In this document: piece by piece, positions 16,389 through 45,418 of the stretch | Position numbering within the stretch: position 1 is the first letter of the stretch | Layout of the letters: every line of letters starts with the position of its first letter | Assembly: GCA_016278485.1 (NCBI GenBank) | Contig: JADQBT010000010.1 | Location: forward strand, 248,001-312,000 | Direction of reading: 5' to 3' | DNA length: 64,000 bases | Source: Halanaerobiales bacterium | Lineage (GTDB): Bacteria > Bacillota > Halanaerobiia > Halanaerobiales > Halanaerobiaceae | Made by a program: the position numbers and the translations under genes | Notes under the pieces: generated by a model | Database searches by the model: none | What the model was told of the DNA's origin: nothing | Seen by the model: the letters and a program-made list of their open reading frames with translations, nothing else

Positions 16389-16423
16389 CAAAACCACTTC
16401 CTTTTCTTAGTATATTTTTATAA

Positions 16424-18756: not shown

Positions 18757-18758
18757 CA

Positions 18759-19235
18759 CTATTCCTCCCCTTTACCAGCAATTTTTTCGGACGCACTCTG
18801 TACAGCAGTAAAGATTTTACTATATCCTGTACATCGACAAATATTACCTGAAAGACCTTTTTTGATTGCATCTATATCTGGATGAGGGTTATCATCAAGT
18901 AACTTCTTGCTAGCAATAATCATGCCCGGAATACAGTAACCACATTGTACGGCCCCAGCTTCAACAAAAGCTTCTTGAATAGGATGAATTTCAGCTGAAC
19001 TACCAAGTCCTTCAATTGTTAGCACTTCAGCACCTGCAGCCTGTGGAGCAGGCACTAAACAGGATGCCACTAATTCACCATTCAGCAAGACTGTACAAGC
19101 ACCACATTCACCCTTGCCACAGCCTTCTTTTGTACCAGTAAGGCCAAGGTCTTCCCTAATCAAATCAAGTAATCTTGCAGAAGGCTTAGTCTCTACTTCA
19201 CGTTTCACACCATTAACAATAAGACTTATCTTCAT
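18759..19235 (-). CDS. xdhC: Xanthine-dehydrogenase-type [2Fe-2S] subunit, copy 1
   Basis: 158-residue iron-sulfur subunit (xdhC in E. coli naming, unrelated to the XdhC maturation factor). Plant-type cluster ligands C39, C44, C47, C59 and second-cluster ligands C98, C101, C133, C135 are all present (EGCGKGECGAC, QCGYCIPGM, GNICRCTGY). It passes electrons from the molybdenum site towards FAD. Start ATG 19235 with GGAGGTGA six bases upstream; a TTG at 19238 is less likely. Tightly packed between FAD and molybdenum subunits. Confidence 0.93.
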   Translation of the reverse strand: MKISLIVNGVKREVETKPSARLLDLIREDLGLTGTKEGCGKGECGACTVLLNGELVASCLVPAPQAAGAEVLTIEGLGSSAEIHPIQEAFVEAGAVQCGYCIPGMIIASKKLLDDNPHPDIDAIKKGLSGNICRCTGYSKIFTAVQSASEKIAGKGEE

Positions 19236-19241
19236 CAAAGG

Positions 19242-20159
19242 TCACCTCCGGTCCTCTTCGATTTTTTCCAGAGCATTAATCATAATATCGCGAGCCACAT
19301 CTTTCCGATAGGCTTTTGTTCCGCGCAAATCATCAATTGGAGAAATAGTATTTCTAACTTGTTCAGCTATTTTAGTATAATTAAGCTCAGCCATTTTCTT
19401 GCTTACTAATTCCTTTTCTACAGATTCCAATTTAAAAGGCACTGGGGCAACCGATCCCATGGCCAAACCTGCCTTTTTAATCCTATTTTCTAGATCAAAC
19501 TCCACGACAAAAGCTAGAGAAATTGAAGAAATAACTAAAGCTTTCCTCCGACCAAGTTTTTTCCAAAAACTATAAGTTTCTGCAGAAGGACGTGGAATCT
19601 CAATTGCTATTAACAACTCATTATTTTTTAAAACACTTTTTTTAGGACCAGTAAAAAATTCAGTTGCCAGAACCTCTCTTTTACCCTCTTTTGAAGCCAA
19701 TATAAACTTGGCACCATAAGCAACCAACGGTGGCAAGATATCACCTGCTGGTGATGCTGTGCAGATATTCCCACCGATTGTTCCTCGACTTCTAATTTGT
19801 GGTGAGCCAACCTCTTCCGCAGCTTCTGAAAGTGCTGGCAAAATATCTCTCAACTCCGTAGAATTGGCTAATCTTTGATGTGTCACCATTGCACCAATCA
19901 CAATATTTTTATCATTAATATCAATATTTTTTAAAATAGGAATCTTAGTTAAATCAAGCCAACTCTCTATTTCAAATAACTTTTCATAATATGCAACAAG
20001 CAGATCCGTTCCACCTGCTAAAACAGTTAACTCAGACCCATAATCATCTTTTAATTCCAGAGCCTTTTCCAAACTTTCCGGCCTAAAAAACTGTTTAGAA
20101 TCTTCTCCAGAAATCTGTGGCTTGTTCTCTAACTTCTTGGTAGATTCTTTCATCATCAA
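19242..20159 (-). CDS. xdhB: Xanthine-dehydrogenase-type FAD subunit, copy 1
   Basis: 305 residues, CO-dehydrogenase-FAD-binding fold: FFRPESLEKALEL (~residues 25-37), the FAD loop VLAGGTDLLVAY, and RSRGTIGGNICTASPAGDILP (~residues 123-143). TTG 20159 has AGGAGGTG seven bases upstream; ATG 20156 is an equally possible start. The N-terminal ~20 residues are an extension relative to copy 2 (23275-24150) and overlap the ssnA 3' end by 65 bp. Third partner of the copy-1 hydroxylase. Confidence 0.92.
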   Translation of the reverse strand: MMMKESTKKLENKPQISGEDSKQFFRPESLEKALELKDDYGSELTVLAGGTDLLVAYYEKLFEIESWLDLTKIPILKNIDINDKNIVIGAMVTHQRLANSTELRDILPALSEAAEEVGSPQIRSRGTIGGNICTASPAGDILPPLVAYGAKFILASKEGKREVLATEFFTGPKKSVLKNNELLIAIEIPRPSAETYSFWKKLGRRKALVISSISLAFVVEFDLENRIKKAGLAMGSVAPVPFKLESVEKELVSKKMAELNYTKIAEQVRNTISPIDDLRGTKAYRKDVARDIMINALEKIEEDRR

Positions 20160-21426
20160 GGATCTTCACCTCCTGATTCTCCATCAAAACATTTCCTCCA
20201 ACAATTGTGGTTTCAACCATCCCACCATTTATACCAAACAATAAATGAGCATAAACGTTTTCTGGTAGTATCTCGGTCGGTGCATCATAATCAACTACAA
20301 TAATATCTGCTGCAGCCCCTTCTTTGAGAACACCCAGATCAACACCAAAACTCTGACTAGCAATCTTTCTATTATTTGCAAACGCCATGGCTGGAATCTC
20401 TTCCCAACCTGGTCTTGGATCTTGATTACCATGTTTTATTAAAAGATGTGCAACCTTTATACTCTCAAACATATCTGTAGTATAACCATCAGTACCAAGT
20501 CCAACATTTAAGCCCTTCGCAAACGCCTCTTTAACAGGAGATAAACCAACCGCATTACTCATATTTGATTCTGGATTATGAATTAAAGAACAACTATTTT
20601 CTTTGAGAATCTCCAGTTCACCTTCTTGAAGATGTACACCATGAATAGCAATTGTACCTGGCCGCCAGATATTATAATTAGCAAGCCTTTCTACAACCCC
20701 ATGATAGCCTTGCAAATGACTATGCTCAACATCAGCTCTTCCTTCAGCGACATGGATATGAAAACCTACATCTAATTGATCAGCCAAAGCTGATACTTTC
20801 TGTAGAGTTTCATCTCCCAAAGTAAAAGAAGCATGCAGGCCAATTTTACCCGCAAAATATTTTTGGTCATAATGGCTAAGGTTTTTTATATATCTTTCAT
20901 TTTCTTCAATAGCAAGGTCAGCTTCTTTTCTTCCATGCCGGTCAGATATTTCATAAGAAAGATCTGCTCTAATGCCTGCTTCTTTGACAGCTTCAGCTAT
21001 TACAGACAGACTTCCTTCGGTCATTCCATAACTTGCATGATGATCGATAATACTTGTTGTCCCCTGGCGGATCCCAATTAGCAGTGGATAAATTGCGCTA
21101 TAGTAGATATCATCTTCATTCATTTTTCCATCCAGGCGCCACCATAATTTTTCTAAAATTTCAACAAAATTTCTAGCTGGTTGCTCTGTTTTCAAATCCA
21201 TCCCTCGAGCAAAAGTACTATAAAGATGCATATGTGTGTTTATCATACCTGGCATAATTACCTTGCCATTTACATCTTTAAATTCTGCTTCTGGATAATT
21301 ATTCTTTAACTCATTGGTATCACCAATTGCTTTAATAGTTTCATCTTCTATTAGTACTGCACCATCATTGATTACACGTGATTTTTGATCAAAGGTCAGC
21401 ACTTTTCCGTGTCCCAGTAGTAGCAT
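20095..21426 (-). CDS. ssnA: SsnA-family aminohydrolase
   Basis: 443-residue amidohydrolase closely matching E. coli SsnA along its length: VMPGMINTHMHLYSTFARGM (metal His pair), WWRLDGKMNEDDIYYSA, SIIDHHAS, LGTDGYTTDMFE and a C-terminal ATDFWRRF. SsnA is linked to selenium/molybdenum hydroxylase loci and to anaerobic purine (urate) breakdown in enterobacteria and gut anaerobes, where it probably acts on a ring or ring-opened intermediate. Here it lies between the two hydroxylase operons. Family firm, exact reaction not established from sequence. Confidence 0.9.
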   Translation of the reverse strand: MLLLGHGKVLTFDQKSRVINDGAVLIEDETIKAIGDTNELKNNYPEAEFKDVNGKVIMPGMINTHMHLYSTFARGMDLKTEQPARNFVEILEKLWWRLDGKMNEDDIYYSAIYPLLIGIRQGTTSIIDHHASYGMTEGSLSVIAEAVKEAGIRADLSYEISDRHGRKEADLAIEENERYIKNLSHYDQKYFAGKIGLHASFTLGDETLQKVSALADQLDVGFHIHVAEGRADVEHSHLQGYHGVVERLANYNIWRPGTIAIHGVHLQEGELEILKENSCSLIHNPESNMSNAVGLSPVKEAFAKGLNVGLGTDGYTTDMFESIKVAHLLIKHGNQDPRPGWEEIPAMAFANNRKIASQSFGVDLGVLKEGAAADIIVVDYDAPTEILPENVYAHLLFGINGGMVETTIVGGNVLMENQEVKILDDERIYQEVREQATDFWRRF

Positions 21427-21441
21427 TTTAAATCCTCCTAC

Positions 21442-22806
21442 CTATCTATTCTCAAACATTTTTTTAGCTATTTTATTTGCTTTTCGGATAGTTTCTTGTT
21501 CATCAACCTTCACAAGTTCTCCATCTTTTACGACAACTTCACCATTTACAATAGTAAAATCAACAATCTGTGTAATACCTGTATTAACTATTGCAGAAAC
21601 AGGGTCATACTGTCCACCAGCAAAACCGAGCCTCTCTGAACTAACCATAAACATATCAGCTGCTTTGCCTTCAGCAAGACTCCCTATTTCCGGTTGATTC
21701 AAAATATCTCTACTACCATTTGTAGCTAGATATAGAACATCTTCAGCTGTAATAGAATCAATACCATGCACAAGTCGATGCATTAAAAAAGCTAGTTTCA
21801 TTTCCAGGATCATATTTGAAGCATCATTACTCGCACTTCCGTCAACTGCCAGCCCAACTGGCACACCTTTTTCCAACATTTTTGGCACAGGTGCTGCACC
21901 TGAAGCTAATTTCTGATTTGAAGCTGGGCAATGAGCAACTCCGGTACCAGTTTCAGCCATTCTATCAAGTTCACTATCACTTAAATGTACCCCATGTGCA
22001 TACCAGACATCATCACCTATCCAACCTAATTTTTCCATATAGGCAAGTGGTCTCATGCCAAAATTATCAATCACATATTGTTCTTCATCTTTTGTTTCTG
22101 CCAAATGAGTATGGCTCTGCACCCCATATTCCCGGGCCAGTTTTATGGACTCAACCATTAACTCTTCAGATACAGAAAATGGTGAACAAGGTGATAAGAC
22201 AACCCGCTGCATAGCAAAAGGCTTGTGATCATGATACTTCTCAATAACTCTGCGTGAATCTTGCAAAATTTCTGCATCTGTTTGGACAACACTATCAGGT
22301 GGAAGTCCACCATCCTTTTCACTTAATGACATACTACCTCGACTAGCATGAAATCTAATACCTATTTCACTAGCTGCATCAAACTGATAATCCAATAAAT
22401 TCGCAGGTTGATTCTTGGGAAAAACATAAAAATGATCACTAGCGGTTGTACAACCCGTTTTTAAAAGTTCACCTGCAGCAATCTGAGTACTATAATAGAC
22501 TGCATCTGGGGTTAAATTGGCCCAGATAGGATAAAGATATTTTAACCAATTAAATAATTCTACATTTTGAGCAGCAGGTAAGTTTCTGGTCAGTGTCTGA
22601 TAAAAATGATGATGTGTATTTATTAGTCCAGGAAAAAGGAAATATTTACTACCATCTATTACCTGATCTACCCCTTCTTCTTTAATTTCTTTTGCCAGCT
22701 TAGCAATCTTATTATCTTTGATGAGAAGGCTGAAATTCTTCAGCCTTCTCTTTTCTTCATCCATAGTAATTATCTCTTTAACATTTTTAAGCAAAATGCT
22801 AGACAT
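21442..22806 (-). CDS. 8-oxoguanine deaminase-like / guanine-deaminase-family amidohydrolase
   Basis: 454-residue metal-dependent deaminase. Motifs are FPGLINTHHHFYQTLTRNLP (metal His), VLSPCSPFSVS, THLAETKDEE, HGVHLSD, GVAHCPASNQKLASG and VGLAVDGSASNDASN (metal Asp), the pattern of the 8-oxoguanine deaminase/hydroxyatrazine hydrolase group rather than classical guanine deaminase. Likely product is urate or xanthine for the downstream pathway. Its ATG shares a base with the stop of the [2Fe-2S] gene, so it is co-translated with hydroxylase copy 2. Confidence 0.82.
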   Translation of the reverse strand: MSSILLKNVKEIITMDEEKRRLKNFSLLIKDNKIAKLAKEIKEEGVDQVIDGSKYFLFPGLINTHHHFYQTLTRNLPAAQNVELFNWLKYLYPIWANLTPDAVYYSTQIAAGELLKTGCTTASDHFYVFPKNQPANLLDYQFDAASEIGIRFHASRGSMSLSEKDGGLPPDSVVQTDAEILQDSRRVIEKYHDHKPFAMQRVVLSPCSPFSVSEELMVESIKLAREYGVQSHTHLAETKDEEQYVIDNFGMRPLAYMEKLGWIGDDVWYAHGVHLSDSELDRMAETGTGVAHCPASNQKLASGAAPVPKMLEKGVPVGLAVDGSASNDASNMILEMKLAFLMHRLVHGIDSITAEDVLYLATNGSRDILNQPEIGSLAEGKAADMFMVSSERLGFAGGQYDPVSAIVNTGITQIVDFTIVNGEVVVKDGELVKVDEQETIRKANKIAKKMFENR

Positions 22807-23282
22807 TAACTGTCACGTCCCTGTTGAATTACATCTTCTACTGCTTCAATGATTTGCTCATAGCCAGTACAGCGACACAGATTACCTTCCAAAGTAGTTT
22901 TAATCTGATCGCGATCGGGATAAGCATCTTTATTTAGCAAAGCTACTGCTGACATCAACATACCTGGTGTGCAAAATCCACACTGTACTGCTTGGTGATC
23001 AATAAATGCCTGCTGTAAAGGATGTAAGTTACCATTTTTTTCTAAGCCTTCTACGGTTAATATTTCAGATCCTGCTACTTGAGCGGTCAATACCATACAT
23101 GAATTAACTGCATCCCCGTCCAATATAACTGTACAGGCACCGCACTCTCCTACACCACAACCTTCTTTAGTTCCAATCAACTTTAATTGATTTCTCAATG
23201 TATCAAGTAGTCTCTCTTCCGGACCAACCTTGAGTTGATGATCTATACCATTTATATTAATCTTTACATCTACTTTATTCAT
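22806..23282 (-). CDS. xdhC: Xanthine-dehydrogenase-type [2Fe-2S] subunit, copy 2
   Basis: 158-residue iron-sulfur subunit with both cluster motifs intact (EGCGVGECGACTV, then QCGFCTPGM and GNLCRCTGYEQI). ATG start at 23282 overlaps the FAD-subunit stop by 8 bp. Differs clearly from copy 1, so the two hydroxylases are old paralogues rather than a fresh duplication. Electron transfer from molybdenum centre to FAD. Confidence 0.93.
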   Translation of the reverse strand: MNKVDVKININGIDHQLKVGPEERLLDTLRNQLKLIGTKEGCGVGECGACTVILDGDAVNSCMVLTAQVAGSEILTVEGLEKNGNLHPLQQAFIDHQAVQCGFCTPGMLMSAVALLNKDAYPDRDQIKTTLEGNLCRCTGYEQIIEAVEDVIQQGRDS

Positions 23283-24150
23283 CTAAGCCTGCCTCCTTTT
23301 TCATTAATTCAATAGCTCTTCTGGCAAGCGTTGTCAGAGCAGGTCTCTTATAAGGAGTTGACCATCTTTCTCCTGTAATTGAAACCATTTCCTCAGCAGC
23401 CATTTCACCTATTTGCTGAGGTTCAAGTTCTGCTATCTTTTTACCAGTTAAAAAAGCATTTACATTATTAAATGGTGTTGGAGTTGGAGTCGCTGCACCA
23501 GGCACCAAATTAGCTTCTCTCAATTCGCCATTTTCAACTACTGCCAGAAAACCCATACATAATCTTGATATATTCAACGCTTTACGGCGTCCAATTTTCT
23601 GGAAGTTACAGTAATACTCTCCTTCTGGTAAAGCAAATCGAATTGATTTTAAAAGTTCATTTTCTTTAAGATCAGTTCGGTATGGACCTGTAATAAACTC
23701 TGTCATGGGAAGTTCTCTTTCCCCATCTTTTGAAAGCAGAATCACATTGGCTGAAAGTGCCAACAAAGGAGGAAATAAATCTGCTGCAGGTGAAGCATTA
23801 CAAACATTCCCACCAATTGTAGCTCTATTCCTAATCTGAGTCGAACCAATTGTACGTGCTGCCTCTGCCAAAAAAGGAATTTTATCATTAAATAACTCAT
23901 CATTACATAGTTGGTTATGAGTAACAAGACTACCAATTTCAACTTGCTTTCCTATAACATTAATCTTTTTTAACTCTTTCAGACTTGAAATATCAAGCAA
24001 GTAATCAATCTCAGCAAATTCAGGATCACCCTCATGTAATCCAACTAATACATCTGTTCCACCAGCAATTAATTTAACATTTTCTTTTTCATTTAATAAT
24101 TGAATAGCTTCATCTACTGAATTAGCTTTTAGAAAATCATATGCATACAT
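23275..24150 (-). CDS. xdhB: Xanthine-dehydrogenase-type FAD subunit, copy 2
   Basis: 291 residues: YDFLKANSVDEAIQLLNE at the N-terminus, IAGGTDVLVGLHEG FAD loop and RNRATIGGNVCNASPAADLFP (residues ~107-127). C-terminal CODH_FAD_C domain ends with AAEEMVSITGERWSTPYKR. SD-like AAGGGGGG lies upstream of the ATG. Two bases separate it from the large-subunit gene. Confidence 0.93.
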   Translation of the reverse strand: MYAYDFLKANSVDEAIQLLNEKENVKLIAGGTDVLVGLHEGDPEFAEIDYLLDISSLKELKKINVIGKQVEIGSLVTHNQLCNDELFNDKIPFLAEAARTIGSTQIRNRATIGGNVCNASPAADLFPPLLALSANVILLSKDGERELPMTEFITGPYRTDLKENELLKSIRFALPEGEYYCNFQKIGRRKALNISRLCMGFLAVVENGELREANLVPGAATPTPTPFNNVNAFLTGKKIAELEPQQIGEMAAEEMVSITGERWSTPYKRPALTTLARRAIELMKKEAGLDE

Positions 24151-24152
24151 TA

Positions 24153-26444
24153 TTATTTACCCCCCTTACTTAGAGATCTACCGATTAGTACTCGTTCTAG
24201 ATTAAGAGGAAGTGATCTAATTCTTTTACCAGTTGCCTGGGCAACCGCATTAGCTATGGCGGCACTTCCGAGTTCCAAGGTAGGCTCACCAATTGATTTT
24301 GCCCCATATGGTCCATTAGAATCAGGATTTTCTACAATAATTGGTTCAATTTCTGGCATATCTTTAATCGTTGGAATTAAATAATCATTAAAATTAGTGT
24401 TTTTAATGCGTCCTTGGTCTACCTCTAATTCTTCCATAATACCGTAACCTAAACCCATCAATACACCACCATAAATCTGGCCTTTTACATTATCCGGATT
24501 AATTGCTCGACCAACATCATGAGCTGCGGTCATATTCATTACTGTTAGTTCACCTGTACCAGTATCAACTTCGACTTCCGCTACCTGGCAACCATAAACA
24601 TATGTGAAATAAGGATTTCCGTGACCATTCTCTTCATCCCAGGAAATTGCAGGCCCTTTATACCAACCATAAGCTGACATGATAACACCATTGTTGCCCA
24701 TCTCTCCAACAAGATCATCAAAGGTAGCAAGTCTATTACCCTGATCATCATAAATGAAATTATCTTTAATATCAATTTTAGCTAATTCCAAATTAAATTT
24801 ATCTGCCGCATAACTTTCTATAGAAGACCTTAATTTACTGGCTGCATCTTTAACCGCATTCCCACCAATTAAAGTACTTCTTGAGGCAACAGTTGAACCA
24901 CTATCTGGAGTAAAAGTTGTATCAATCTCCATATAATGGATATGATTCATATCCACACCCAGACCTTCTGCTGCTATCTGAGCAAAAACCGTTTTTAAAC
25001 CCTGACCATTTTCAGCCAAACCACTATATACGGCTACACTGCCATCTTTATTTATCTGAACAATTGCTGCAGCTGCATCAACTGCTTCTGCGCCTAAACT
25101 ACATCCACGAAAACTTATAGCAAGACCAATACCTCTTTTTTTATCACCAGGTTGTTCTTGACTATATTGAGCATATTTTTCTTTAAAGTTACTCTTTTCC
25201 ATTGCTTTTGTTAAAACTTCATTTAAGCTAACCTCATGGTTATCAAGGACCTGACCACTTGCCGTTACTGAACCATTTTCATACATATTTTTTAGTCGTA
25301 ATTCTATGGGATCCATCCCAAGTTCCTCTGCAAGCTCATCCATTAATGATTCTTGCGAAAAGATTATCTGAGGAGATCCATAACCACGCATGGCTCCAGT
25401 ATAAGGATTATTTGTGTAATAACCATAAGTATCTGTCTTGACATTTGCTACTTCATATGGTCCTGTCGCTTGCACAACTGATCTCCATGTTACAAAAGGA
25501 GTCTGGCAAGCATAACCACCACTTTCTGCTACTGCTTCTATTTCCATTGCAGTTAATTTTCCCTCTTTTGTGGCACCTACTTTATACTTTAAATGATAAG
25601 GATGTCTTTTATAACTTTCAATTATTGACTCTTCCCGTGTATTAACCATTTTAATAGGGCGATCTGTTTTTAAAGCCAGTACAGAGGCTCTGGCAGCCAT
25701 CGCTGAAACAACTTCATCCTTTCCACCAAAAGAACCACCAATATGATTTTGAATAACTCTAACTTTACTTAAATCTGCTTTTAATACTGTTGCTACTGCT
25801 GTTCTAGTCGCATAAGGATTTTGTATTGCCCCGTAGACAGTTACCAGATGATTATTATCATGAGGAACTACCACAACTGCTTCCGGTTCAATGTAACTGT
25901 GTTCTATATATTGGGTTGTATATTCTCTTTCTAAAACAATGTCTGCTTCAGCAAAACCTTGCTTAACATCACCTTTGCGTAGAGGATGATGAACAACCTG
26001 ATTATCTTCCTTTTCTGGATATAGTTTTTGGGAATTTTCTTTTCTTGCTTCCAATACATCATAAATCCCAGGTAATTCTTCATATTCAACTTCAATTAGT
26101 TTAACTGCTTTAGCTGCTGTTTCTTCATCATCAGCCGCAACCATAGCAATTCCATCTCCATTTAATACTGCTTTTTTATCAGCCAATACTTGTTGGTCCT
26201 GAATAATAACTCCAAATAAATTATTGGGAATATCTTGAGCAGTTAGGACTGCCTTTACACCTGCCAATTCTTCAGCTTTTTGCGTATCAATATTGAGTAT
26301 ACGAGCATGTGGATAGTCAGTTCTCAATACTTTGGCATAAAGCATATTGGCAAATTCAATATCAGCACCATATTTAGCTTTACCTGTTACTTTTTCATAT
26401 GCATCAACACGTTCAACAGGTTTATTGACATGTTTAAATACCAT
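24153..26444 (-). CDS. xdhA: Xanthine-dehydrogenase-type molybdenum subunit, copy 2 (full length)
   Basis: 763-residue molybdopterin subunit with all domains in one chain: hammerhead domain (VDAYEKVTGKAKYGADI), IGGSFGGKDEVVSAM, MRGYGSPQ, GLAENGQGLKTVFAQ, and GPYGAKSIGEPTLELG with the catalytic Glu. Preceded by GGAGGTG. First gene after the xanthine-type permease and an intergenic hairpin. Xanthine, hypoxanthine or nicotinate-type substrates are possible by family; the neighbouring permeases and deaminases favour a purine. Confidence 0.92.
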   Translation of the reverse strand: MVFKHVNKPVERVDAYEKVTGKAKYGADIEFANMLYAKVLRTDYPHARILNIDTQKAEELAGVKAVLTAQDIPNNLFGVIIQDQQVLADKKAVLNGDGIAMVAADDEETAAKAVKLIEVEYEELPGIYDVLEARKENSQKLYPEKEDNQVVHHPLRKGDVKQGFAEADIVLEREYTTQYIEHSYIEPEAVVVVPHDNNHLVTVYGAIQNPYATRTAVATVLKADLSKVRVIQNHIGGSFGGKDEVVSAMAARASVLALKTDRPIKMVNTREESIIESYKRHPYHLKYKVGATKEGKLTAMEIEAVAESGGYACQTPFVTWRSVVQATGPYEVANVKTDTYGYYTNNPYTGAMRGYGSPQIIFSQESLMDELAEELGMDPIELRLKNMYENGSVTASGQVLDNHEVSLNEVLTKAMEKSNFKEKYAQYSQEQPGDKKRGIGLAISFRGCSLGAEAVDAAAAIVQINKDGSVAVYSGLAENGQGLKTVFAQIAAEGLGVDMNHIHYMEIDTTFTPDSGSTVASRSTLIGGNAVKDAASKLRSSIESYAADKFNLELAKIDIKDNFIYDDQGNRLATFDDLVGEMGNNGVIMSAYGWYKGPAISWDEENGHGNPYFTYVYGCQVAEVEVDTGTGELTVMNMTAAHDVGRAINPDNVKGQIYGGVLMGLGYGIMEELEVDQGRIKNTNFNDYLIPTIKDMPEIEPIIVENPDSNGPYGAKSIGEPTLELGSAAIANAVAQATGKRIRSLPLNLERVLIGRSLSKGGK

Positions 26445-26528: not shown

Positions 26529-27875
26529 TTAACAGATTTTCTTTTCATTATGTGGCAAAAATAAGTTGAGCGCAATCGCTATAATCGCACCAACAGTAAT
26601 TCCAGAAGATAAAACTGTTGATAACCAGTTAGGTAGTTGAGCAACTACTTCTGGTCTAAAAGTAACACCAAGTCCAAAACTAAGTGCAATAGAAAGAATA
26701 AATATTTTTCTGTCAGAAAGTCCGCCACGTGCGACAATCTTCATACCTGAAGTTGCAACCATACCAAATAGAGCAATTGTTGCTCCACCTAATACAGGGG
26801 CCGGCATCACACTAACGAGTGCTCCAATCTTAGGTACAAGACCTAACAAGAATAATATAGAAGCAGTCGCTACCCCAACAACTCTACTACCAACTTTTGT
26901 TAATTGAATAACACCAATATTCTGACTAAAAGTTGAATTAGCTAGTGAGTTAAATACAGCTGCAAAAGCACTACCAATTCCATCTGCTAGAATACCACCA
27001 CTTAATCTTTTAGTATGAAGCTCTCCTTCAATTGGCTCACCAGAAACTTCTGCTACAGCAGTCAGATCACCAATTGACTCAACAGTAGTAATAATGTAAG
27101 CCATAATCCAGGGTAATAAATGACTGAATCTAAATGACATACCATATTTAAAAGGAACTGGAACAGTTAACCAACCTGCATCTACTATTGGTTGCATATT
27201 GATTAAACCTAGTGGTATTGCTACCAGATAACCAGCAATTAAGCCCATAGCAATTGCTCCTACTTTGACTAAACCTTTGCCAAACCTATTAGCAAATATA
27301 ATAATCATCAGAACAAAGGAACCTAATAAAAGATTCTGTACACTACCATAGTCCTGGGCTCCTGCTCCCCCACCAAAATCAGTAATACCAACTTCCATCA
27401 GTCCAAGACCAATTAACATTACAACTGTTCCAGTAACAACAGGTGGAAACAACTTTTTAGTCTGACGGATAAATCTACTTAAAATCAGTTCCACTGGAGA
27501 TGTTGCAAGAGTCATACCTAAAACCAGAGGTAAGCCACCTTCACTAGCTGCGGCTATCGCCATTGGCACAAATGTAAAGCTTGTACCTTGTACCCCTAAT
27601 AACCCAGAACCGACTGGACCAAGTTTAGTACATTGAATATAAGTTGTAACACCCGAAACCATTAAAGCCATACTAACAAAAAAACCAGTCTCTGCCGCAC
27701 TCAAACCGGCTACACCAGCTATAATTAACGGTGGTGTAATAATTCCTACAAACATAGATAACATATGTTGTAATCCTAATAAAAGCGTCTCCGGAATTGG
27801 TGGACGATCCTCTAATTTATAATCTGCCTCTTCTGTAATAACAAACTCACTTTTAGCCTCTTGCACTTCTGCCAC
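26529..27875 (-). CDS. Xanthine/uric-acid permease-like transporter, NCS2 UraA/PbuX branch
   Basis: 448-residue, ~14-segment nucleobase:cation symporter-2 protein. The family region GVQGTSFTFVPMAIA lies near residue 108, with ESIGDLTAVAEVSG (~266-279) and QNIGVIQLTKVGSR (~319-332) as substrate-binding helices. GTG start with AAGGAG about 9 nt upstream. It is unrelated in subfamily to the AzgA-type permease at 12077, so the island carries importers of both NCS2 branches. Xanthine or urate is the likely cargo next to xdhA. Confidence 0.87.
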   Translation of the reverse strand: MAEVQEAKSEFVITEEADYKLEDRPPIPETLLLGLQHMLSMFVGIITPPLIIAGVAGLSAAETGFFVSMALMVSGVTTYIQCTKLGPVGSGLLGVQGTSFTFVPMAIAAASEGGLPLVLGMTLATSPVELILSRFIRQTKKLFPPVVTGTVVMLIGLGLMEVGITDFGGGAGAQDYGSVQNLLLGSFVLMIIIFANRFGKGLVKVGAIAMGLIAGYLVAIPLGLINMQPIVDAGWLTVPVPFKYGMSFRFSHLLPWIMAYIITTVESIGDLTAVAEVSGEPIEGELHTKRLSGGILADGIGSAFAAVFNSLANSTFSQNIGVIQLTKVGSRVVGVATASILFLLGLVPKIGALVSVMPAPVLGGATIALFGMVATSGMKIVARGGLSDRKIFILSIALSFGLGVTFRPEVVAQLPNWLSTVLSSGITVGAIIAIALNLFLPHNEKKIC

Positions 27876-28039: not shown

Positions 28040-29023
28040 TTATTTGCTTCCCATAGTTACTGACATAACAGCTTTAGCAGTATGCAGTCTATTTTCAGCT
28101 TCATCAAAAACAATAGAATGTGGTCCATCAATCACTGAATCTTCAACTTCGTTTCCACGGTCAGCAGGTAATGCATGCATATACATTACATCGTCTTTTG
28201 CAAGTGACATCAATTCTTCTGTACATTTCCAATATTTATTGGCTTCTAAAAGATCATCAATTACATCATCACTTTTATTAGATACCCAGCTACCCCAATT
28301 TTTCGGAATAACTATATCTGCATCACGATAGGCTTCTTCCTGGTCATGAGTAATTGTTAATTTCCCATTATTCTTTTTAGCATTTTCTCTTGCTTGTTCG
28401 ATGACCCAATCAGGTAGTTCATAACCTTTAGGATAAGCAAGTGTTACATCCATACCATAACGAGGGAACAGTAATACCTGAGTAAGTGGTACAGAAATAG
28501 GCTTTTTATGACTAGTTGCATAAGCCCAGATAACTGAAACTTTAAGATTTCTTGTATCTTTTTTCTTTTCTTGAATAGTCATTAAATCTGCTAATCCCTG
28601 CATTGGATGATAAAGATCACACTGTAAGTTCATTACTGGTACTTTAGCATGCTTAGCTAAATTACGAATATAATCATTACCTATTTCCCAGAAACAATTT
28701 CTACAGGCAATACCATGGCCATAGCTACCTAAAATAACACCAGTATCTTTAGCCACCTCACCATGAGAAACCTGCATTGTTGATGTATCTAAGAAGTTTG
28801 CATGTCCACCCAGTTGAGCTAAACCAGCTTCCATTGAATTTCTAGTTCTAGTTGACTGTTCAAAAAACATCAAAAATGCTGTTTTTCTTAATAAATATGG
28901 AGTATCTACTCCCATTGCAAACTTACGCTTTAAATCAAAGGAAACATCTAAAAGTGTATCAATTTCGTCATTATTCCATTCCTGTAAAGTAATAAAATCT
29001 TTGCCCTTCATTTGTGTTTGCAT
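28040..29023 (-). CDS. ygeW: Carbamoyltransferase of the YgeW family
   Basis: 327-residue ATCase/OTCase-superfamily enzyme. Carbamoyl-phosphate loop FFEQSTRTRNS (residues ~54-64) is intact; the second-domain HALPADRGNEVEDSVIDGP replaces the HCLPA of ornithine carbamoyltransferase, which fits YgeW, whose true substrate is unsettled. Shorter than E. coli YgeW (about 396). AAGGAGG precedes the ATG. In purine-degrading clusters this enzyme is thought to phosphorolyse a ureido intermediate, giving carbamoyl phosphate and hence ATP; that role is inferred here from its ygeY neighbour. Confidence 0.85.
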   Translation of the reverse strand: MQTQMKGKDFITLQEWNNDEIDTLLDVSFDLKRKFAMGVDTPYLLRKTAFLMFFEQSTRTRNSMEAGLAQLGGHANFLDTSTMQVSHGEVAKDTGVILGSYGHGIACRNCFWEIGNDYIRNLAKHAKVPVMNLQCDLYHPMQGLADLMTIQEKKKDTRNLKVSVIWAYATSHKKPISVPLTQVLLFPRYGMDVTLAYPKGYELPDWVIEQARENAKKNNGKLTITHDQEEAYRDADIVIPKNWGSWVSNKSDDVIDDLLEANKYWKCTEELMSLAKDDVMYMHALPADRGNEVEDSVIDGPHSIVFDEAENRLHTAKAVMSVTMGSK

Positions 29024-29041: not shown

Positions 29042-30286
29042 TTATTTAACTAAATTATCTGTTTTTTCTGGCATTTGATCTGCGTGATTATTAACAAAAA
29101 CTTTAGGTATTACAGCATAAATCGCTGCCGCTTTTACCAACTCTGATTTCCAAGTCTTTTCATTTGGCGCATGTGCTTGATCTTCATGACCAGGGCCAAA
29201 ACCAATACATGGAATACCATGACGGCCCATAATTGTCACACCATTTGTGGAAAATGTCCACTTATCAACAAGTGGGTCTTCTCCAAAAACACCTTGATAA
29301 CTTTCAACAGTGGCCTGACAGACTGGGTGGTCTTCTTCAATCAACCAGGTAGGGAAATATGATTCTATAGGATAGATAAGCCCTGTATAAGAAGGCCTCT
29401 CATACTCATACATCTCTACTGTAGCCCCTGCCGCCTGCACAGCAGGTAGATTTTTAATCTGCTCTAATGCAAACTCCCAGGTTTCACCTGCTGTTAATCT
29501 TCTGTCAATTGAAATACTACATCCATCTGCTACTGCACAACGAGAAGGAGAGCTAAAAAATATTTCTGAGACAGCAAGACTACCTTTTCCTAAAAAATCA
29601 TGCTCTGTTAAATTAGGATGCAGTGCCTTTAACTCATTAATAATTGGAGCCATTTTATAAATTGCATTTTCTCCTCTTTCAGGAGCAGAGCCGTGACAAC
29701 TTACACCATGAGTAGTTACTTTAATCTCCATTCTTCCCCTATGACCACGATATATATTACAGGATGTTGGTTCTGTAATTACGACAAACTCTGGTTTAAT
29801 ATCGTCTTCATTAATAATATACTGCCAACAGAGTCCATCACAATCTTCTTCCTGTACTGTCCCTGTAATTACGAGTGTATAGTCATCTTCTAGGCCAAGA
29901 TCTTTAATGATCTTACCTGCATAAACCATGGAAGCCATACCACCTTCTTGATCACTCGCACCTCTTCCCAGGATTATTTCATCATCTTCATAGCCTTCAT
30001 ATGGATCATAATCCCAAAGATCAGGATCACCCACACCGACTGTGTCAATATGCGCATCCATTGCTATGACATGGCTGCCATGACCAATAAATCCTAAAAC
30101 ATTTCCCATTGGGTCGATTTCTACTTTATCAAAACCTACCCGTTCCATCTCTTCTTTGATTCTTAATACAACTTTTTTTTCATCACAGCTTTCACTGGGA
30201 AGACGTATCATATCCCGTAAAAACTTACTCATTTCTGGCTTATATTGTTCTGCTTTTTCTAAAACTTTTGAAAAATCAAGCTGCAA
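29042..30286 (-). CDS. ygeY: YgeY-family M20 hydrolase
   Basis: 414-residue zinc-dependent M20 peptidase/deacylase. Metal ligands are in [31 protein letters not shown] and [31 protein letters not shown] follows. Start taken as TTG 30286 because AGGAGGT lies seven bases upstream; the GTG at 30295 is inside that SD. YgeY accompanies selenium/molybdenum hydroxylase loci and probably hydrolyses an acyl-amino or ureido acid made from the purine ring. Adjacent to ygeW, as in E. coli. Confidence 0.88.
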
Positions 30287-30309
30287 TATAGTCACCTCCT
30301 AAGATATTT

Positions 30310-30861
30310 TTAGAAATTAGGTGGAGTAATCGCTGATATAAATATCAGGTCAGTATCTCCAATACTAATTAATTTGTGAGGAATACTAGCTTTATAATAA
30401 ACACTGTCTCCAGGGTCTAAAACATACACTTCTTCCCCAATTTCCATCCTCATCTTACCCTCTAAAACCAAAGTACATTCTTCGCCGTTATGGGATAAAG
30501 GTGTATCAAGTGTTGCTGCACCAGGTTCTAATCTTGCCTGAATTATTTCCATTTCGTGTTTAAGATCAGGAGATATCAGTTCAAAAGTCAAATGAGAACC
30601 TGGAAACTTTAATACTTTTCTTTCTTCTTTGCGGACAACCGCATTATGACTCTCGTTTTCTACTAAAAAGAAAAATATTGGTACCTCAAGAGCTTTAGCA
30701 ATTTCCCGTAGCGCAGTAATTGAAGGTTCAGCCAGACCTCTCTCGACTTGACTTAAATAACTTGAGGTTTTACCTATTTTATCGGCAAGTTTCGCCAGAC
30801 TCAAGCTTTGAGACAATCTCATTTTTCTAATTTTTGCTCCTAATCTTTCATTCTCAGTCAC
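30310..30861 (-). CDS. XRE-family regulator with C-terminal cupin sensor domain
   Basis: 183 residues: HTH_3 domain at ~9-63 (LSLAKLADKIGKTSSYLSQV) and a cupin barrel at ~105-175 (THE-like metal site replaced by SHNGEECTLVLEG, then DPGDSVYYKASIPHKL). PuuR-like architecture, in which the cupin binds a small metabolite. GTG start. It lies inside the catabolic operon between ygeY and the threonine-synthase-like gene, so it probably controls the island in response to a pathway intermediate (inference). Confidence 0.87.
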   Translation of the reverse strand: MTENERLGAKIRKMRLSQSLSLAKLADKIGKTSSYLSQVERGLAEPSITALREIAKALEVPIFFFLVENESHNAVVRKEERKVLKFPGSHLTFELISPDLKHEMEIIQARLEPGAATLDTPLSHNGEECTLVLEGKMRMEIGEEVYVLDPGDSVYYKASIPHKLISIGDTDLIFISAITPPNF

Positions 30862-30862
30862 T

Positions 30863-32116
30863 TTATTTTGTCACTCCTAGCTCCTTAAATAATTCTACCA
30901 ATTGATCCATATCTGGTTTTACTTTTAAAGGATCACCTGCTGCTTTTCGTGCATTAGCTACATCTTTTAACCCATTCCCAGTAATAACCGTTACTACCTT
31001 AGCATCAGTACTAATAATTCCTTCTGCTATTGCTTTTTTAAGACCAGCCAGACCTGTAACACCTGCCGGTTCACCAAAAACACCAGTAGTACGCCCTGTA
31101 ATTTTCATCATCTCTAAAATTTCCTCGTCACTAACATTAATCATATCACCATTAGAAGCTTTAACTGCTCTAACCGCTTTTATCCAATTACGAGGCTTAC
31201 CCACTGCAATACTATCTGCAAGTGTATTCTCAGATTCTACTTCAAGCGGGTTGCCTGTTTTAAATGATTTAGTAATTGGAGCACAACCTTCTGCTTGAAC
31301 ACCTAAAAATTTTGGCATTTTGTCTATAAAACCAATCTGTTGCAGATCATATAAACCTTTCCAGGCACCAGCAATTGTACAACCATCACCCACTGAATAA
31401 ACAACCCAGTCGGGCATCAACCAATTTAACTGCTCGGCGATCTCTAAAGAGATCGTCTTTTTGCCCTCAACTAAATAAGGATTGATTGCAGCATTCCGGT
31501 TATACCAACCCCATTTTTTAATTGCTTCATCAGATAAATAAAATGCTTCTTCATAAGACCCTTGCACAGATACTACCTGAGCGCCATAGATTAATAATTG
31601 TGCCAGCTTTCCAGCTGGTGCACGTTCAGGTACAAAAATTACTGCATCCATTTCGCCGCCCATTGAGGCGATATTTCCCGCCAATGAAGACGCTGCATTT
31701 CCTGTTGATGAACAGGCTACAGTCTTTGCTCCTGCCTCTTGCGCCTTTACAACAGCCATGGCTGAAGCCCTATCCTTTAAAGAGCCTGTTGGATTTAATC
31801 CATCATCTTTTAATATTAAATTTTCAAGTCCTAATTCTTTAGCTAATGCAGGTGTCTCATAAATTGGCGTCCATCCCACTGCCAGAGCTGGCTTTTTAGT
31901 AAGTGGATCAATAGGCAATAAAGGTGTATAGCGCCAGATACTCTTATCTTGATTAGCAGCTAATTCATCTTTAGACCAATCCTTTGCAATTGCCTGATAA
32001 TCATATTCAACATCTAGTAGACCTTTCTCATCACATTGATCACATAAATATCTATCTGCCTTTGGTTCATATTTTGCTCCACAATTGATACAAACTAAAC
32101 TTTTAACATATTTCAT
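30863..32116 (-). CDS. Threonine-synthase-like PLP enzyme with N-terminal zinc ribbon
   Basis: 417-residue fold-type-II PLP enzyme. N-terminal zinc ribbon (CINCG ... CDQC), PLP lysine in DGLNPTGSLKDRASA, and the phosphate loop CSSTGNAASSLAGN. Start ATG 32116 is preferred over GTG 32122 from the SD GAAGG. True threonine synthase normally lies with homoserine genes; here it is between the regulator and another PLP enzyme in a purine island. It may therefore carry out ammonia-lyase or beta-replacement chemistry on a pathway amino acid, perhaps in the place occupied by the diaminopropionate lyase ygeX elsewhere. That is inference. Confidence 0.75.
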   Translation of the reverse strand: MKYVKSLVCINCGAKYEPKADRYLCDQCDEKGLLDVEYDYQAIAKDWSKDELAANQDKSIWRYTPLLPIDPLTKKPALAVGWTPIYETPALAKELGLENLILKDDGLNPTGSLKDRASAMAVVKAQEAGAKTVACSSTGNAASSLAGNIASMGGEMDAVIFVPERAPAGKLAQLLIYGAQVVSVQGSYEEAFYLSDEAIKKWGWYNRNAAINPYLVEGKKTISLEIAEQLNWLMPDWVVYSVGDGCTIAGAWKGLYDLQQIGFIDKMPKFLGVQAEGCAPITKSFKTGNPLEVESENTLADSIAVGKPRNWIKAVRAVKASNGDMINVSDEEILEMMKITGRTTGVFGEPAGVTGLAGLKKAIAEGIISTDAKVVTVITGNGLKDVANARKAAGDPLKVKPDMDQLVELFKELGVTK

Positions 32117-32138
32117 TTTCACACCTTCTCAAGACTTA

Positions 32139-33611
32139 TTAAAGTTCTTTAAGCAGGCCTGTTCTTTCATTAAAATCTTCAATTAATTTGTCAATTTCAT
32201 CAGCCTGTTTATGCAGTTCGCCCCAATAATTATCATAATCATACCACTGGCTTGCCAGTTCCTCTGAAGACTTACCTTGTTGTTCTATCCAGGTATAATA
32301 CTTCAAATTATGGACTCTTTTACGTTCTTGATAACCCATTTCAAGAGTATTTTCAATACCAATATCTTCTAACCATTTATGATAGTCACGAATAGCGTCT
32401 TCTCGCGTATATTCTCCAAACTCTTCACGCATTTCTTCTAATCTAGAGCCATATAATTCAAGTGAATCAGTTAATAATGTCATTACCATATCATGATTGT
32501 CTAATTCATAATACTTAGCAAATTTAATGGCACCTACTAAATTAGCTATACCAGAAATACCCATCAATTCAAGTTTTCCAATAAACTCTTCGGGAACACC
32601 TTTTTCTATTAAATAATCTCTACCTACTGGCTCATTAAAAAGTCTTAATAATGCCATTGTACGATTATCGTCAATTGCTATGGCCATGTCAGTATTTTTC
32701 ACATTATGAATCCAAGGAATATGTTTATCACCAATTCCCTCAATACGATGGGCTCCAAACCCATTACTTAAAATTGTTGGACATTGTAGTGCCTCACCTA
32801 CTGCAATTTTACTTTTCGGAAAGACATCTTTTAAATAATCGCCAGCACCCAAAGTTCCAGCTGAACCACTTGTAGCAAAAAATCCTGCAAAACGATCATC
32901 TGCACGCATTTCTTTTTTAATTGCATCTTCCATAGCAGAACCAGTAACTTCATAATGCCAGAGATGGTTTCCTAATTCTTCAAATTGATTAAAAATCGTA
33001 ATATTATCTCTGGTTTCACGCAATTCCCAACATTTATCAAAAATCTCTTTTACATTACTTTCAGTTCCTGGTGTTGGAATTACTTCACCCGCTACATTAG
33101 CTAACCAATCAAAACGCTCTTTACTCATACCTTCTGGTAAAATAGCTATTGACTCACAACCAAGTAACTGGGAGTTATAGGCTCCACCTCGACAATAATT
33201 ACCTGTAGAAGGCCAAACTGCCTTTGTTGAAGTTGGATCAAACTGACCTGTAACAAGTTGTGGGGCCAGACAACCAAAAGTTGCTCCAACTTTGTGAGCA
33301 CCTGTTGGGAACCACTTACCAACAATGGCAAATATCCTTGCATCAACACCTGTCAGTTCAGAAGGGAATTCAATATAATTTACACCATCATAAAGGCCAC
33401 CTTCTTTAACTGGTTCATTTTGCCAGGTTAGACGGAATAAGTTATAACTATTTACATCCCAAAGACCTACATCTTTTAATCTGTCTTTAATTTTTTCTGG
33501 AATCAGGTCAGGATTTTTCATCTGTTTATACGTTGGGATAATGACATTCTGTTCTTTGGCTTTTTTAACTGCTCCCGCTAACTTTTTTTCATTAATTTTA
33601 AGATTTATCAT
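32139..33611 (-). CDS. Fold-type-II PLP-dependent enzyme, cysteine-synthase-like, unusual 490-residue form
   Basis: 490 residues from ATG 33611, which has AGGAGG seven bases upstream. PLP lysine is in WFPTGAHKVGATFG and a glycine-rich loop in VWPSTGNYCRGGAYNSQL; the C-terminal ~90 residues are acidic helices (YHKWLEDIGIENTLEMGYQ). About 100-150 residues longer than ordinary cysteine synthases, and not diaminopropionate ammonia-lyase by its motifs. First gene of the island, so probably well expressed. I cannot name its substrate; an amino acid derived from the opened purine ring is a reasonable guess. Confidence 0.7.
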   Translation of the reverse strand: MINLKINEKKLAGAVKKAKEQNVIIPTYKQMKNPDLIPEKIKDRLKDVGLWDVNSYNLFRLTWQNEPVKEGGLYDGVNYIEFPSELTGVDARIFAIVGKWFPTGAHKVGATFGCLAPQLVTGQFDPTSTKAVWPSTGNYCRGGAYNSQLLGCESIAILPEGMSKERFDWLANVAGEVIPTPGTESNVKEIFDKCWELRETRDNITIFNQFEELGNHLWHYEVTGSAMEDAIKKEMRADDRFAGFFATSGSAGTLGAGDYLKDVFPKSKIAVGEALQCPTILSNGFGAHRIEGIGDKHIPWIHNVKNTDMAIAIDDNRTMALLRLFNEPVGRDYLIEKGVPEEFIGKLELMGISGIANLVGAIKFAKYYELDNHDMVMTLLTDSLELYGSRLEEMREEFGEYTREDAIRDYHKWLEDIGIENTLEMGYQERKRVHNLKYYTWIEQQGKSSEELASQWYDYDNYWGELHKQADEIDKLIEDFNERTGLLKEL

Positions 33612-44055: not shown

Positions 44056-44185
44056 ACTTATGTAATAAATTTATTTACTCATACAGAACTCCTAATTGTT
44101 AAATTAATAACTATTAAATAGTCAAAAACAATGACAATTTAGTGCCTTCTTACATATTATGCTTATAAAAGAAAGGAGTTCTGTC

Positions 44186-45418
<1,233 letters not shown>

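What the first reader, a model, noticed from the sequence alone, without database searches (positions are those of the whole stretch)
30863..33611. Two fold-type-II PLP enzymes opening the purine operon
A zinc-ribbon threonine-synthase-like protein and a long cysteine-synthase-like protein (extra acidic helical C-terminus, motif WFPTGAHKVGATFG) are the first genes of the island, 22 nt apart. Neither family member is expected in purine breakdown. They may act in sequence or as a complex on a diamino or ureido acid.
Basis: inference. Interest (0 to 1): 0.5.

Follow-up and report, generated by a model that had tools for sequence, protein, structure and literature searches.

The report
Paired enzymes ending uric-acid breakdown
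Next to genes for oxygen-free breakdown of uric acid lies a widely conserved pair of uncharacterised vitamin-B6 enzymes that probably turn the last diamino acid into serine, an alternative to the ending described so far.

Summary
In detail: two fold-type-II PLP genes, 22 nt apart, open a minus-strand purine operon. They sit with YgeY, a carbamoyltransferase, SsnA and xanthine dehydrogenases: the reductive urate pathway, whose described end is 2,3-diaminopropionate (DAP) to pyruvate by YgeX. No YgeX was found in this genome. 'ThrCL' resembles threonine synthase, but four substrate-site residues (S155, R160, N188, R242; 31 of 31 sampled ThrC) are replaced in 43 of 43 relatives, with two invariant new aspartates: cations lost, acids gained. 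'PLP2' is a divergent cysteine-synthase relative; an aspartate invariant in 48 aligned sequences and 80 of 80 named loci aligns with Asp232 of Fn1055, which makes L-serine from cysteine and water. All 43 ThrCL genomes (of 199) have PLP2; 39 have close YgeY orthologues. Some relatives carry L-serine dehydratase, SHMT, FTHFS or FolD beside the pair. Best model: the pair turns DAP into L-serine. Who does what is unproven; perhaps ThrCL handles D-DAP (racemase?) and PLP2 swaps the beta-amine for hydroxyl. Against a pure YgeX replacement: eight genomes with close YgeY orthologues have both systems. No activity was tested. New variant of a known pathway.

The parts
32139..33611 (-). PLP2: divergent fold-type-II PLP enzyme of the cysteine-synthase/CBS branch with extra N- and C-terminal helices
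   Evidence: D295 invariant in 48 aligned sequences and 80/80 named loci
30863..32122 (-). ThrCL: zinc-ribbon, threonine-synthase-like PLP enzyme with an altered substrate pocket (GTG start; ATG at 32116)
30310..30861 (-). HTH-cupin regulator (PuuR-like, 68.6 bits, cut-off 211); relatives lie within two genes of ThrCL in 9 of 42 and of PLP2 in 9 of 48 genomes
29042..30295 (-). YgeY hydrolase (TIGR03526, 719.7 bits, cut-off 321.5)
28040..29023 (-). OTC-like carbamoyltransferase in the YgeW position; below the cut-offs of both OTC (256.7 < 280.85) and YgeW (166.3 < 500)
26529..27875 (-). Xanthine permease (TIGR03173, 444.4 bits, cut-off 414.15)
22806..26444 (-). First molybdenum hydroxylase set: Mo 24153-26444, FAD 23275-24150, FeS 22806-23282
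   Evidence: Mo subunit only was scanned; below equivalog cut-offs; FAD and FeS by eye
21442..22806 (-). 8-oxoguanine-deaminase-family aminohydrolase (611.7 bits, cut-off 532)
20095..21426 (-). SsnA aminohydrolase (585.6 bits, cut-off 444; TIGR03314 549.8, cut-off 455.5)
16424..20159 (-). Second molybdenum hydroxylase set; the Mo subunit is split in two ORFs (17413-18759 and 16424-17413)
   Evidence: first half of the Mo subunit scanned; the rest by eye
15306..16397 (-). PreA/dihydroorotate-dehydrogenase-like reductase with 4Fe-4S domain, in the position of UacX
   Evidence: below named cut-offs
13491..15179 (-). Adenine-deaminase-like protein (Adenine_deam_C domain)

Best explanation
PLP2 and ThrCL are a YgeX-independent ending of the reductive urate/purine pathway. 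Upstream enzymes give 2,3-diaminopropionate (DAP). The pair then converts DAP to L-serine: the beta-amino group leaves through a PLP-aminoacrylate and water adds in its place. L-serine goes to pyruvate (serine dehydratase) or to glycine plus methylene-THF (SHMT). My assignment, weaker than the outcome: ThrCL takes DAP first, perhaps as a D-to-L racemase, because the upstream intermediates are proposed to be D; PLP2 does the hydroxyl beta-replacement, with D295 activating water as Asp232 is thought to do in Fn1055. Shown: conserved genes, linkage, co-occurrence, residue changes, predicted folds. Inferred: substrate, product, order and stereochemistry.
For: Occurrence among 199 phylum genomes: PLP2 in 51 (E<=1e-30), ThrCL in 43 (E<=1e-90), all 43 inside the 51; 39 of the 43 have YgeY at E<=1e-150 (44 genomes have it, read); Fisher p 7e-36 for ThrCL with PLP2 and 3e-31 for ThrCL with YgeY, over 21 family groups. 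Of the 44, 5 lack ThrCL: G071, G177 and G197, which have YgeX, plus G118 (81% complete) and G153 (85% complete). The window's genome has no YgeX match at E<=1e-60. Linkage: of 42 ThrCL genomes with a read locus, 41 have a purine/ureido-pathway gene within 10 kb and 22 have HyuA within two genes on the same strand. Serine side: SHMT in fetched PLP2/ThrCL loci of 12 of 49 genomes and SdaAA/SdaAB in 5 of 49 (70 loci of up to 20 kb), against 0.5-0.65 expected for SHMT at the rate used; family models confirm representatives of SdaAA, SdaAB, SHMT, FTHFS and GcvT over cut-off and FolD over two of its models' cut-offs. L245 reads YgeY-like, YgeY-like, ThrCL, SHMT, PLP2, FTHFS, FolD. Residues: ThrC S155, R160, N188, R242 and T239 (31/31 each) become A/G, L/M/C, D, A/D and D in 43/43 ThrCL; D246 and D303 are also invariant in 48 ThrCL of the named loci. 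PLP2 D295 aligns with the Asp of Fn1055 that is Asn in the D232N entry 5b55; Fn1055 makes L-serine and H2S from L-cysteine (PMC9600241, PMC9865163, passages), is the best PDB sequence match of PLP2 and is listed second by structure (5z5c, Z 33.8, rmsd 2.6, 313 aligned; 3vc3 first at Z 35.0).
Against: No enzyme activity was tested, and residue logic is not proof. YgeX and the pair coexist: 8 of the 44 strong-YgeY genomes have YgeX together with PLP2 and ThrCL, in two of them (G003, G155) in one cluster, and so do the named loci L233 and L253, so the pair is not simply a substitute. PLP2 is less tied to purines than ThrCL: 14 of 48 genomes have no pathway gene within 10 kb of it, 8 of 51 PLP2 genomes lack ThrCL, and 17 of 80 named loci have neither ThrCL nor a pathway gene (some contigs are short). 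SHMT and SdaAB are absent from most loci and from this window; SdaAB and ArcC lie elsewhere in this genome and FTHFS was not found. Serine genes would also fit a glycine-to-serine-to-pyruvate route. YgeX-only loci are too few (7) to show that they lack serine genes. The residue pattern is not perfect in the named loci: of 48 ThrCL one has Arg at the R242 position and two have Ser at the column of S155. The ThrC sample is the 30 best-scoring matches plus the own one, so it leans to the typical form and leaves out the 500-aa type.
Confidence: 0.5

Rival explanations
1. ThrCL (or PLP2) is simply another DAP ammonia-lyase, an analogue of YgeX that gives pyruvate directly; the partner handles the other DAP enantiomer or regulates, and the serine genes are unrelated passengers of anaerobic amino-acid fermentation.
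For: Same pathway position as YgeX; ThrCL has structural rows for threonine deaminases and serine dehydratases at Z 35-37; genomes with close YgeY orthologues but without the pair have YgeX or are incomplete.
Against: Would not explain why all 43 ThrCL genomes also have PLP2, the Fn1055-like Asp in PLP2, or SdaAB/SdaAA within two genes of PLP2 in five genomes of three family groups.
Confidence: 0.25
2. The cluster is a glycine/serine fermentation module: the purine route here ends in glycine, SHMT and SdaA run glycine to serine to pyruvate, and PLP2/ThrCL act on sulfur, selenium or another side reaction, for example selenium for the molybdenum hydroxylases.
For: SHMT, SdaAA/AB and one GcvT near some clusters; MocA, XdhC and YqeB-like genes beside PLP2 in several loci; cysteine-synthase ancestry of PLP2.
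Against: ThrCL sits with HyuA, OTC, ArcC and YgeY in stretches where the printed part has no labelled MocA, XdhC or YqeB gene (L154, L155); the published product of YgeY is DAP, not glycine.
Confidence: 0.15
3. Both are ordinary biosynthetic enzymes, a threonine synthase and a cysteine synthase, placed here by chance.
For: ThrCL passes NCBIfam threonine-synthase cut-offs (TIGR00260 236.3 > 167.1; PRK08197 317.9 > 303).
Against: Substrate-site residues replaced in 43/43; 39 of 43 ThrCL genomes have two TIGR00260 matches and the window's genome has its own ThrC and two CysK-like genes (by eye); linkage and co-occurrence far above chance; PLP2 scores 81.6 against a CysK cut-off of 350.95.
Confidence: 0.04
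4. The two proteins form one hetero-oligomer that channels aminoacrylate, like tryptophan synthase, rather than two enzymes in sequence (compatible with the DAP-to-serine outcome).
For: All 43 ThrCL genomes have PLP2; in the 50 named loci with both, always on the same strand, 46 within 1.5 kb.
Against: In many genomes the two genes are apart (PLP2 within 10 kb of ThrCL in 23 of 42) and 8 of 51 PLP2 genomes lack ThrCL; no complex prediction could be run.
Confidence: 0.1

Closest known systems
YgeX, diaminopropionate ammonia-lyase of the reductive urate pathway (E. coli, C. difficile)
   Same: Fold-type-II PLP enzyme beside YgeY and a carbamoyltransferase; likely the same substrate, DAP
   Different: Other subfamilies: PRK08206 scores 47.8 bits for ThrCL and 15.3 for PLP2 against a cut-off of 276; two enzymes, not one; neither has Asp in the S-T-G-N loop (D120 of YgeX, recalled)
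Fn1055 cysteine (hydroxyl) lyase of Fusobacterium nucleatum (PDB 5b53, 5b55, 5z5c)
   Same: Best PDB sequence match of PLP2; aligned Asp232; makes L-serine by water beta-replacement
   Different: 340-aa chain against 490 aa, 57 bits only; its substrate is cysteine; PLP2 has extra N- and C-terminal helices
Threonine synthase (ThrC; 1v7c, 6nmx, 2c2b)
   Same: Fold and much of the PLP site of ThrCL (Z 41-51); K61, S84, T85, N87, T317 kept
   Different: S155, R160, N188, R242 replaced, D246 and D303 gained, in 43/43 ThrCL
Cysteine synthase/CBS
   Same: Fold of PLP2 (Z 31-35), Q-F, S-T-G-N and G-I-G motifs
   Different: Asp where the three cysteine synthases printed beside it (7n2t, 8t2c, 8srt) have Ala; TGAHK lysine motif; far below family cut-offs
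Reductive urate cluster variants of Li et al. 2025 (YgfK or UacX, YgeW or UacY)
   Same: XDH, SsnA, a UacX-like reductase, a YgeW-position carbamoyltransferase and YgeY are here
   Different: No YgeX found; the published neighbourhood survey used PF00291 as the mark of YgeX, which both proteins here carry, so it could not separate them

Membership tests
Threonine synthase | Substrate-phosphate residues S155, R160, N188 (roles recalled; conservation measured) | tested here: not met
   31/31 sampled ThrC keep them, 0/43 ThrCL; the five solved ThrC aligned also keep them
Threonine synthase | NCBIfam TIGR00260 score over cut-off | tested here: met
   236.3 bits, cut-off 167.1; the model is broad and does not test the substrate site
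Cysteine synthase (CysK) | TIGR01139 score over cut-off | tested here: not met
   81.6 bits, cut-off 350.95
Cysteine synthase (CysK) | S-x-G-N substrate loop, Q-F motif | tested here: met
   S135-T136-G137-N138 and Q209-F210 in 48/48
YgeX, diaminopropionate ammonia-lyase | PRK08206 score over cut-off | tested here: not met
   ThrCL 47.8, PLP2 15.3, cut-off 276
Hydroxyl lyase of the Fn1055 kind | Asp at the Asp232 position | tested here: met
   Aligned; D295 in 48/48 and 80/80
Hydroxyl lyase of the Fn1055 kind | L-serine made by water beta-replacement | not testable with these tools
   Needs enzyme assay
Reductive urate pathway | SsnA, YgeY, XDH and a UacX- or YgfK-type reductase clustered | tested here: met
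   SsnA and YgeY over cut-offs; two Mo-hydroxylase sets and a PreA-like reductase below equivalog cut-offs
Reductive urate pathway | HyuA and carbamate kinase | tested here: met
   Not in the window; in the genome at C9:180801-182147 (431.3 bits, cut-off 393.25) and C8:11151-12059 (392.8, cut-off 358.25)
Reductive urate pathway | YgeX as last enzyme | tested here: not met
   No match in this genome at E<=1e-60
OrtB, 2-amino-4-oxopentanoate thiolase beta subunit | NF040741 score over cut-off | tested here: not met
   50 bits for ThrCL, cut-off 550; PLP2 not listed at E<=0.01

The most novel reading that the evidence does not exclude
A two-enzyme D-DAP to L-serine route: ThrCL is a racemase or first-acting enzyme for D-2,3-diaminopropionate built on the threonine-synthase fold, with the phosphate pocket turned into an ammonium pocket, and PLP2 is a DAP (hydroxyl) lyase, an activity I know of no example of. 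In several anaerobic phyla urate would then end in serine, glycine and formate with ATP gain, not in pyruvate alone, and many genomes now called YgeX-positive by PF00291 would use it.
Probability: 0.3. Interest if true: 0.75.

Novelty: new variant of a known kind. Interest (0 to 1): 0.6.

Why it matters
The anaerobic urate pathway was laid out only in 2025 and is discussed as a therapy route for gout. Its last step is described for YgeX alone. A second ending, commoner than YgeX among the YgeY-bearing genomes sampled in this phylum (39 of 44 with ThrCL against 11 of 44 with YgeX), would change how the pathway is recognised in genomes and what it yields. It would also give a function to two families, one now named 'threonine synthase' and one over no NCBIfam cut-off, and it makes the open stereochemistry question of the pathway (D or L DAP) testable.

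Tried and rejected
Ordinary threonine and cysteine synthase: rejected on residues, second copies and linkage. YgeX members: rejected on score. OrtB: rejected on score. Strict replacement of YgeX: rejected as a general rule, because 8 of 44 strong-YgeY genomes have both, and YgeX against ThrCL shows no exclusion (Fisher p 0.12). Serine genes in YgeX-only loci: 0 of 7 loci have SHMT or SdaAB against 12 and 5 of 49 genomes, too few to conclude; one locus without PLP2, ThrCL or YgeX (L110) has SdaAB. Tree (84 rows: a subset of the ThrCL and PLP2 rows): PLP2 is one starred clade beside CysK and 29 ThrC one starred clade, but ThrCL came out as 3 label changes; a single origin is not ruled out and not shown. 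Two ThrC rows (G110, G146) were wrong ORFs; they were replaced, from which the 31/31 counts come. The 31 ThrC are the 30 loci that one search returned (its best scores, out of 179 genomes with a match) plus the own one. The 48 named ThrCL are those over 330 aa out of 50 loci; overlap with the 43 was not checked. The 80 named loci are the best 80 kept of 581. The chance estimate for SHMT and SdaAB assumes 1.3 copies per 2.8 Mb and independent genomes; the 12 SHMT genomes fall in 8 family groups and the 5 SdaAB genomes in 3. SHMT lies within 10 kb of ThrCL in 8 of 42 and of PLP2 in 8 of 48; the count of 12 is for the whole fetched stretches. Neighbour labels are BLAST-based with minimum 30-35% identity or 150 bits; ORFs under 100 aa were left out. 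Structure comparison: the part of PLP2 beyond about residue 420 is hardly covered by the listed matches, so nothing is claimed about its fold. Paper searches, listings only; no title or abstract start shown there dealt with these two families in purine breakdown. 'Threonine synthase' does not occur in the main text of PMC12507026, PMC4016543 (abstract and this find) or PMC2276186 (this find). Subscription papers and preprints are not held, so this is not proof of absence. Recalled, not from a call: roles of S155/R160/N188 in ThrC and of Asp232 in Fn1055 as water activator, D120 of YgeX, the sodium:amino-acid symporter name for proteins of L120 and L215 and the D-aminoacylase/UacY name for their neighbours (one search gave only 'amidohydrolase family', below cut-off).
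Full report
What is there. Two adjacent minus-strand genes, PLP2 (32139-33611) and ThrCL (30863-32122), open an operon that runs on through an HTH-cupin regulator, YgeY, an OTC-like carbamoyltransferase, a xanthine permease, two molybdenum hydroxylase sets, an 8-oxoguanine-deaminase-family protein, SsnA and a PreA-like reductase. The genome looks like a Halanaerobium relative: the best named PLP2 match is Halanaerobium kushneri at 82% identity. The window is G000:C9:248001-312000.

The pathway around it. Li et al. 2025 (PMC12507026; abstract and passages) and Percudani 2025 (PMC12990295; part 1 of 2) describe the reductive route: urate to 2,8-dioxopurine, reduction by YgfK or UacX, ring opening by SsnA and HyuA, removal of two ureido groups by YgeW or UacY and by YgeY, and cleavage of 2,3-diaminopropionate by YgeX to pyruvate. 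SsnA and YgeY here pass their cut-offs. HyuA (C9:180801-182147) and carbamate kinase (C8:11151-12059) are elsewhere in the genome and over cut-off. YgeX was not found in the genome at E<=1e-60. The published neighbourhood survey used PF00291 as the YgeX mark, which both PLP2 and ThrCL carry.

Distribution. In 199 genomes of the phylum, PLP2 is in 51, ThrCL in 43, YgeY in 51 over cut-off and in 44 at E<=1e-150, and YgeX in 26 at E<=1e-60, 25 of them over cut-off. All 43 ThrCL genomes have PLP2; 39 have strong YgeY and 42 have YgeY over cut-off. Of the 44 strong-YgeY genomes, 40 have PLP2, 39 ThrCL and 11 YgeX. The five without ThrCL are three with YgeX and two incomplete genomes. Eight genomes have strong YgeY, YgeX, PLP2 and ThrCL together. 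ThrCL occurs in 21 family groups and strong YgeY in 23, with 20 shared.

Linkage. Of 42 ThrCL genomes with a read locus, 41 have a pathway gene within 10 kb; for PLP2 it is 34 of 48. Within two genes on the same strand ThrCL has HyuA in 22 of 42 genomes, PLP2 in 21, ArcC in 11, OTC in 10, a Mo hydroxylase in 10 and YgeY in 9. In 80 named loci (the best 80 of 581), ThrCL lies in 50, always on the same strand as PLP2, 46 of 50 within 1.5 kb; by phylum 31 of 46 Chloroflexota, 10 of 15 Bacillota, 3 of 3 Synergistota, 2 of 2 Myxococcota, 2 of 2 Pseudomonadota, 1 of 2 Spirochaetota, 1 of 2 Thermodesulfobacteriota, 0 of 5 Bipolaricaulota, 0 of 1 Fidelibacterota and 0 of 2 unranked. 17 of the 80 show neither ThrCL nor a pathway gene; some of these contigs are short.

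The serine clue. In four clusters L-serine dehydratase SdaAB then SdaAA directly follow PLP2 (L042, L049, L073, L086), and add L170. SHMT is in fetched PLP2/ThrCL loci of 12 of 49 genomes, for example ThrCL-SHMT-PLP2-SdaAB-SdaAA in L086 and SHMT-ThrCL-PLP2-YgeY-OTC-ArcC in L118. In the Synergistaceae locus L245 the order is YgeY-like, YgeY-like, ThrCL, SHMT, PLP2, FTHFS, FolD, and in Pyramidobacter L215 genes labelled FTHFS and FolD follow the pair after one gene. L110 carries ArcC-SdaAB-SdaAA-GcvT a few genes after YgeY, without PLP2 or ThrCL in the stretch. Family models confirm the representatives tested. Serine made from DAP and then split or deaminated is the simplest reading; glycine run backwards into serine is the alternative.

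ThrCL. It passes threonine-synthase models and its predicted model (pLDDT 92.6) is closest to threonine synthases (2c2b Z 50.9, 405 aligned, rmsd 2.4), then CapA2 (Z 40.1), threonine deaminases and serine dehydratases. Yet S155, R160, N188 and R242, kept in 31 of 31 sampled ThrC, are A/G, L/M/C, D and A/D in 43 of 43 ThrCL, and T239 becomes D. The five solved ThrC aligned keep the S, R and N. D246 and D303 are also invariant in 48 ThrCL from the named loci, where one row has Arg at the R242 position and two have Ser at the S155 column. Two cations lost and two acids gained fits a substrate with a beta-ammonium group rather than a phosphate; this is inference. 39 of 43 ThrCL genomes show two TIGR00260 matches, which points to a threonine synthase besides.

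PLP2. It scores far below the cysteine-synthase cut-offs, forms one starred clade next to CysK, and its model (pLDDT 93.4) matches beta-cyanoalanine synthase, Fn1055, cysteine synthases and CBS at Z 31-35 (rows within 1 are tied). Its best PDB sequence match is Fn1055 (57 bits, E 1.1e-14). In that alignment PLP2 HRIEGIGDKHIP stands over HRIEGISDEFIP, and the D232N entry 5b55 shows N at the same column, while the three cysteine synthases printed beside it have Ala. The title of 5b55 says that the mutant holds the alpha-aminoacrylate intermediate. Fn1055 makes L-serine and H2S from L-cysteine and water (PMC9600241 and PMC9865163, passages). D295 is invariant in 48 aligned sequences and in 80 of 80 named PLP2.

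Why two enzymes. The upstream chemistry is proposed to be of R (D) configuration and the HyuA match is to a D-hydantoinase model, while SdaAB and SHMT use L-serine (general knowledge). A route from D-DAP to L-serine needs inversion as well as replacement. YgeX acts on both isomers. This would explain a pair in place of one enzyme, but it is a hypothesis; a heteromer or two parallel lyases are not excluded.

Verdict. The functional guess of a diamino acid is well supported by context, while the idea that PLP enzymes are foreign to purine breakdown is not. I file the pair as a new variant of the reductive urate pathway, with DAP to L-serine as the leading but untested reaction (0.5).

Noticed in passing
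window 16424-18759 (-): The Mo subunit of the second hydroxylase is split into two ORFs overlapping at TAATG; a split Mo subunit is also seen in L110 (G187).
   Followed up: partly
window 44159-45418 (+): 419-aa protein with a long GPTGPTG collagen-like repeat and a different C-terminal part (BclA-like, recalled).
   Followed up: no
L008 (G000:C20): 583-aa ORF joining a GNAT-like N-terminus to a D-serine-dehydratase-like PALP domain (both names by eye).
   Followed up: no
L041 3500-10500: A close PLP2 (69%) without other purine genes in the stretch lies next to a glycyl-radical enzyme and its activase (by eye).
   Followed up: no
L120 and L215: ThrCL/PLP2 with an amidohydrolase (UacY-like), a sodium:amino-acid symporter-like protein and a YgeY-like hydrolase but no labelled XDH or SsnA in the stretch: perhaps a salvage module for an imported ureido amino acid.
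   Followed up: partly
window 28040-29023 and relatives: The OTC-like protein is 69-88% identical to those of seven loci (L039, L043, L046, L064, L065, L067, L071), less in others, yet below the cut-offs of OTC and YgeW: perhaps a third carbamoyltransferase subfamily in the YgeW position.
   Followed up: partly
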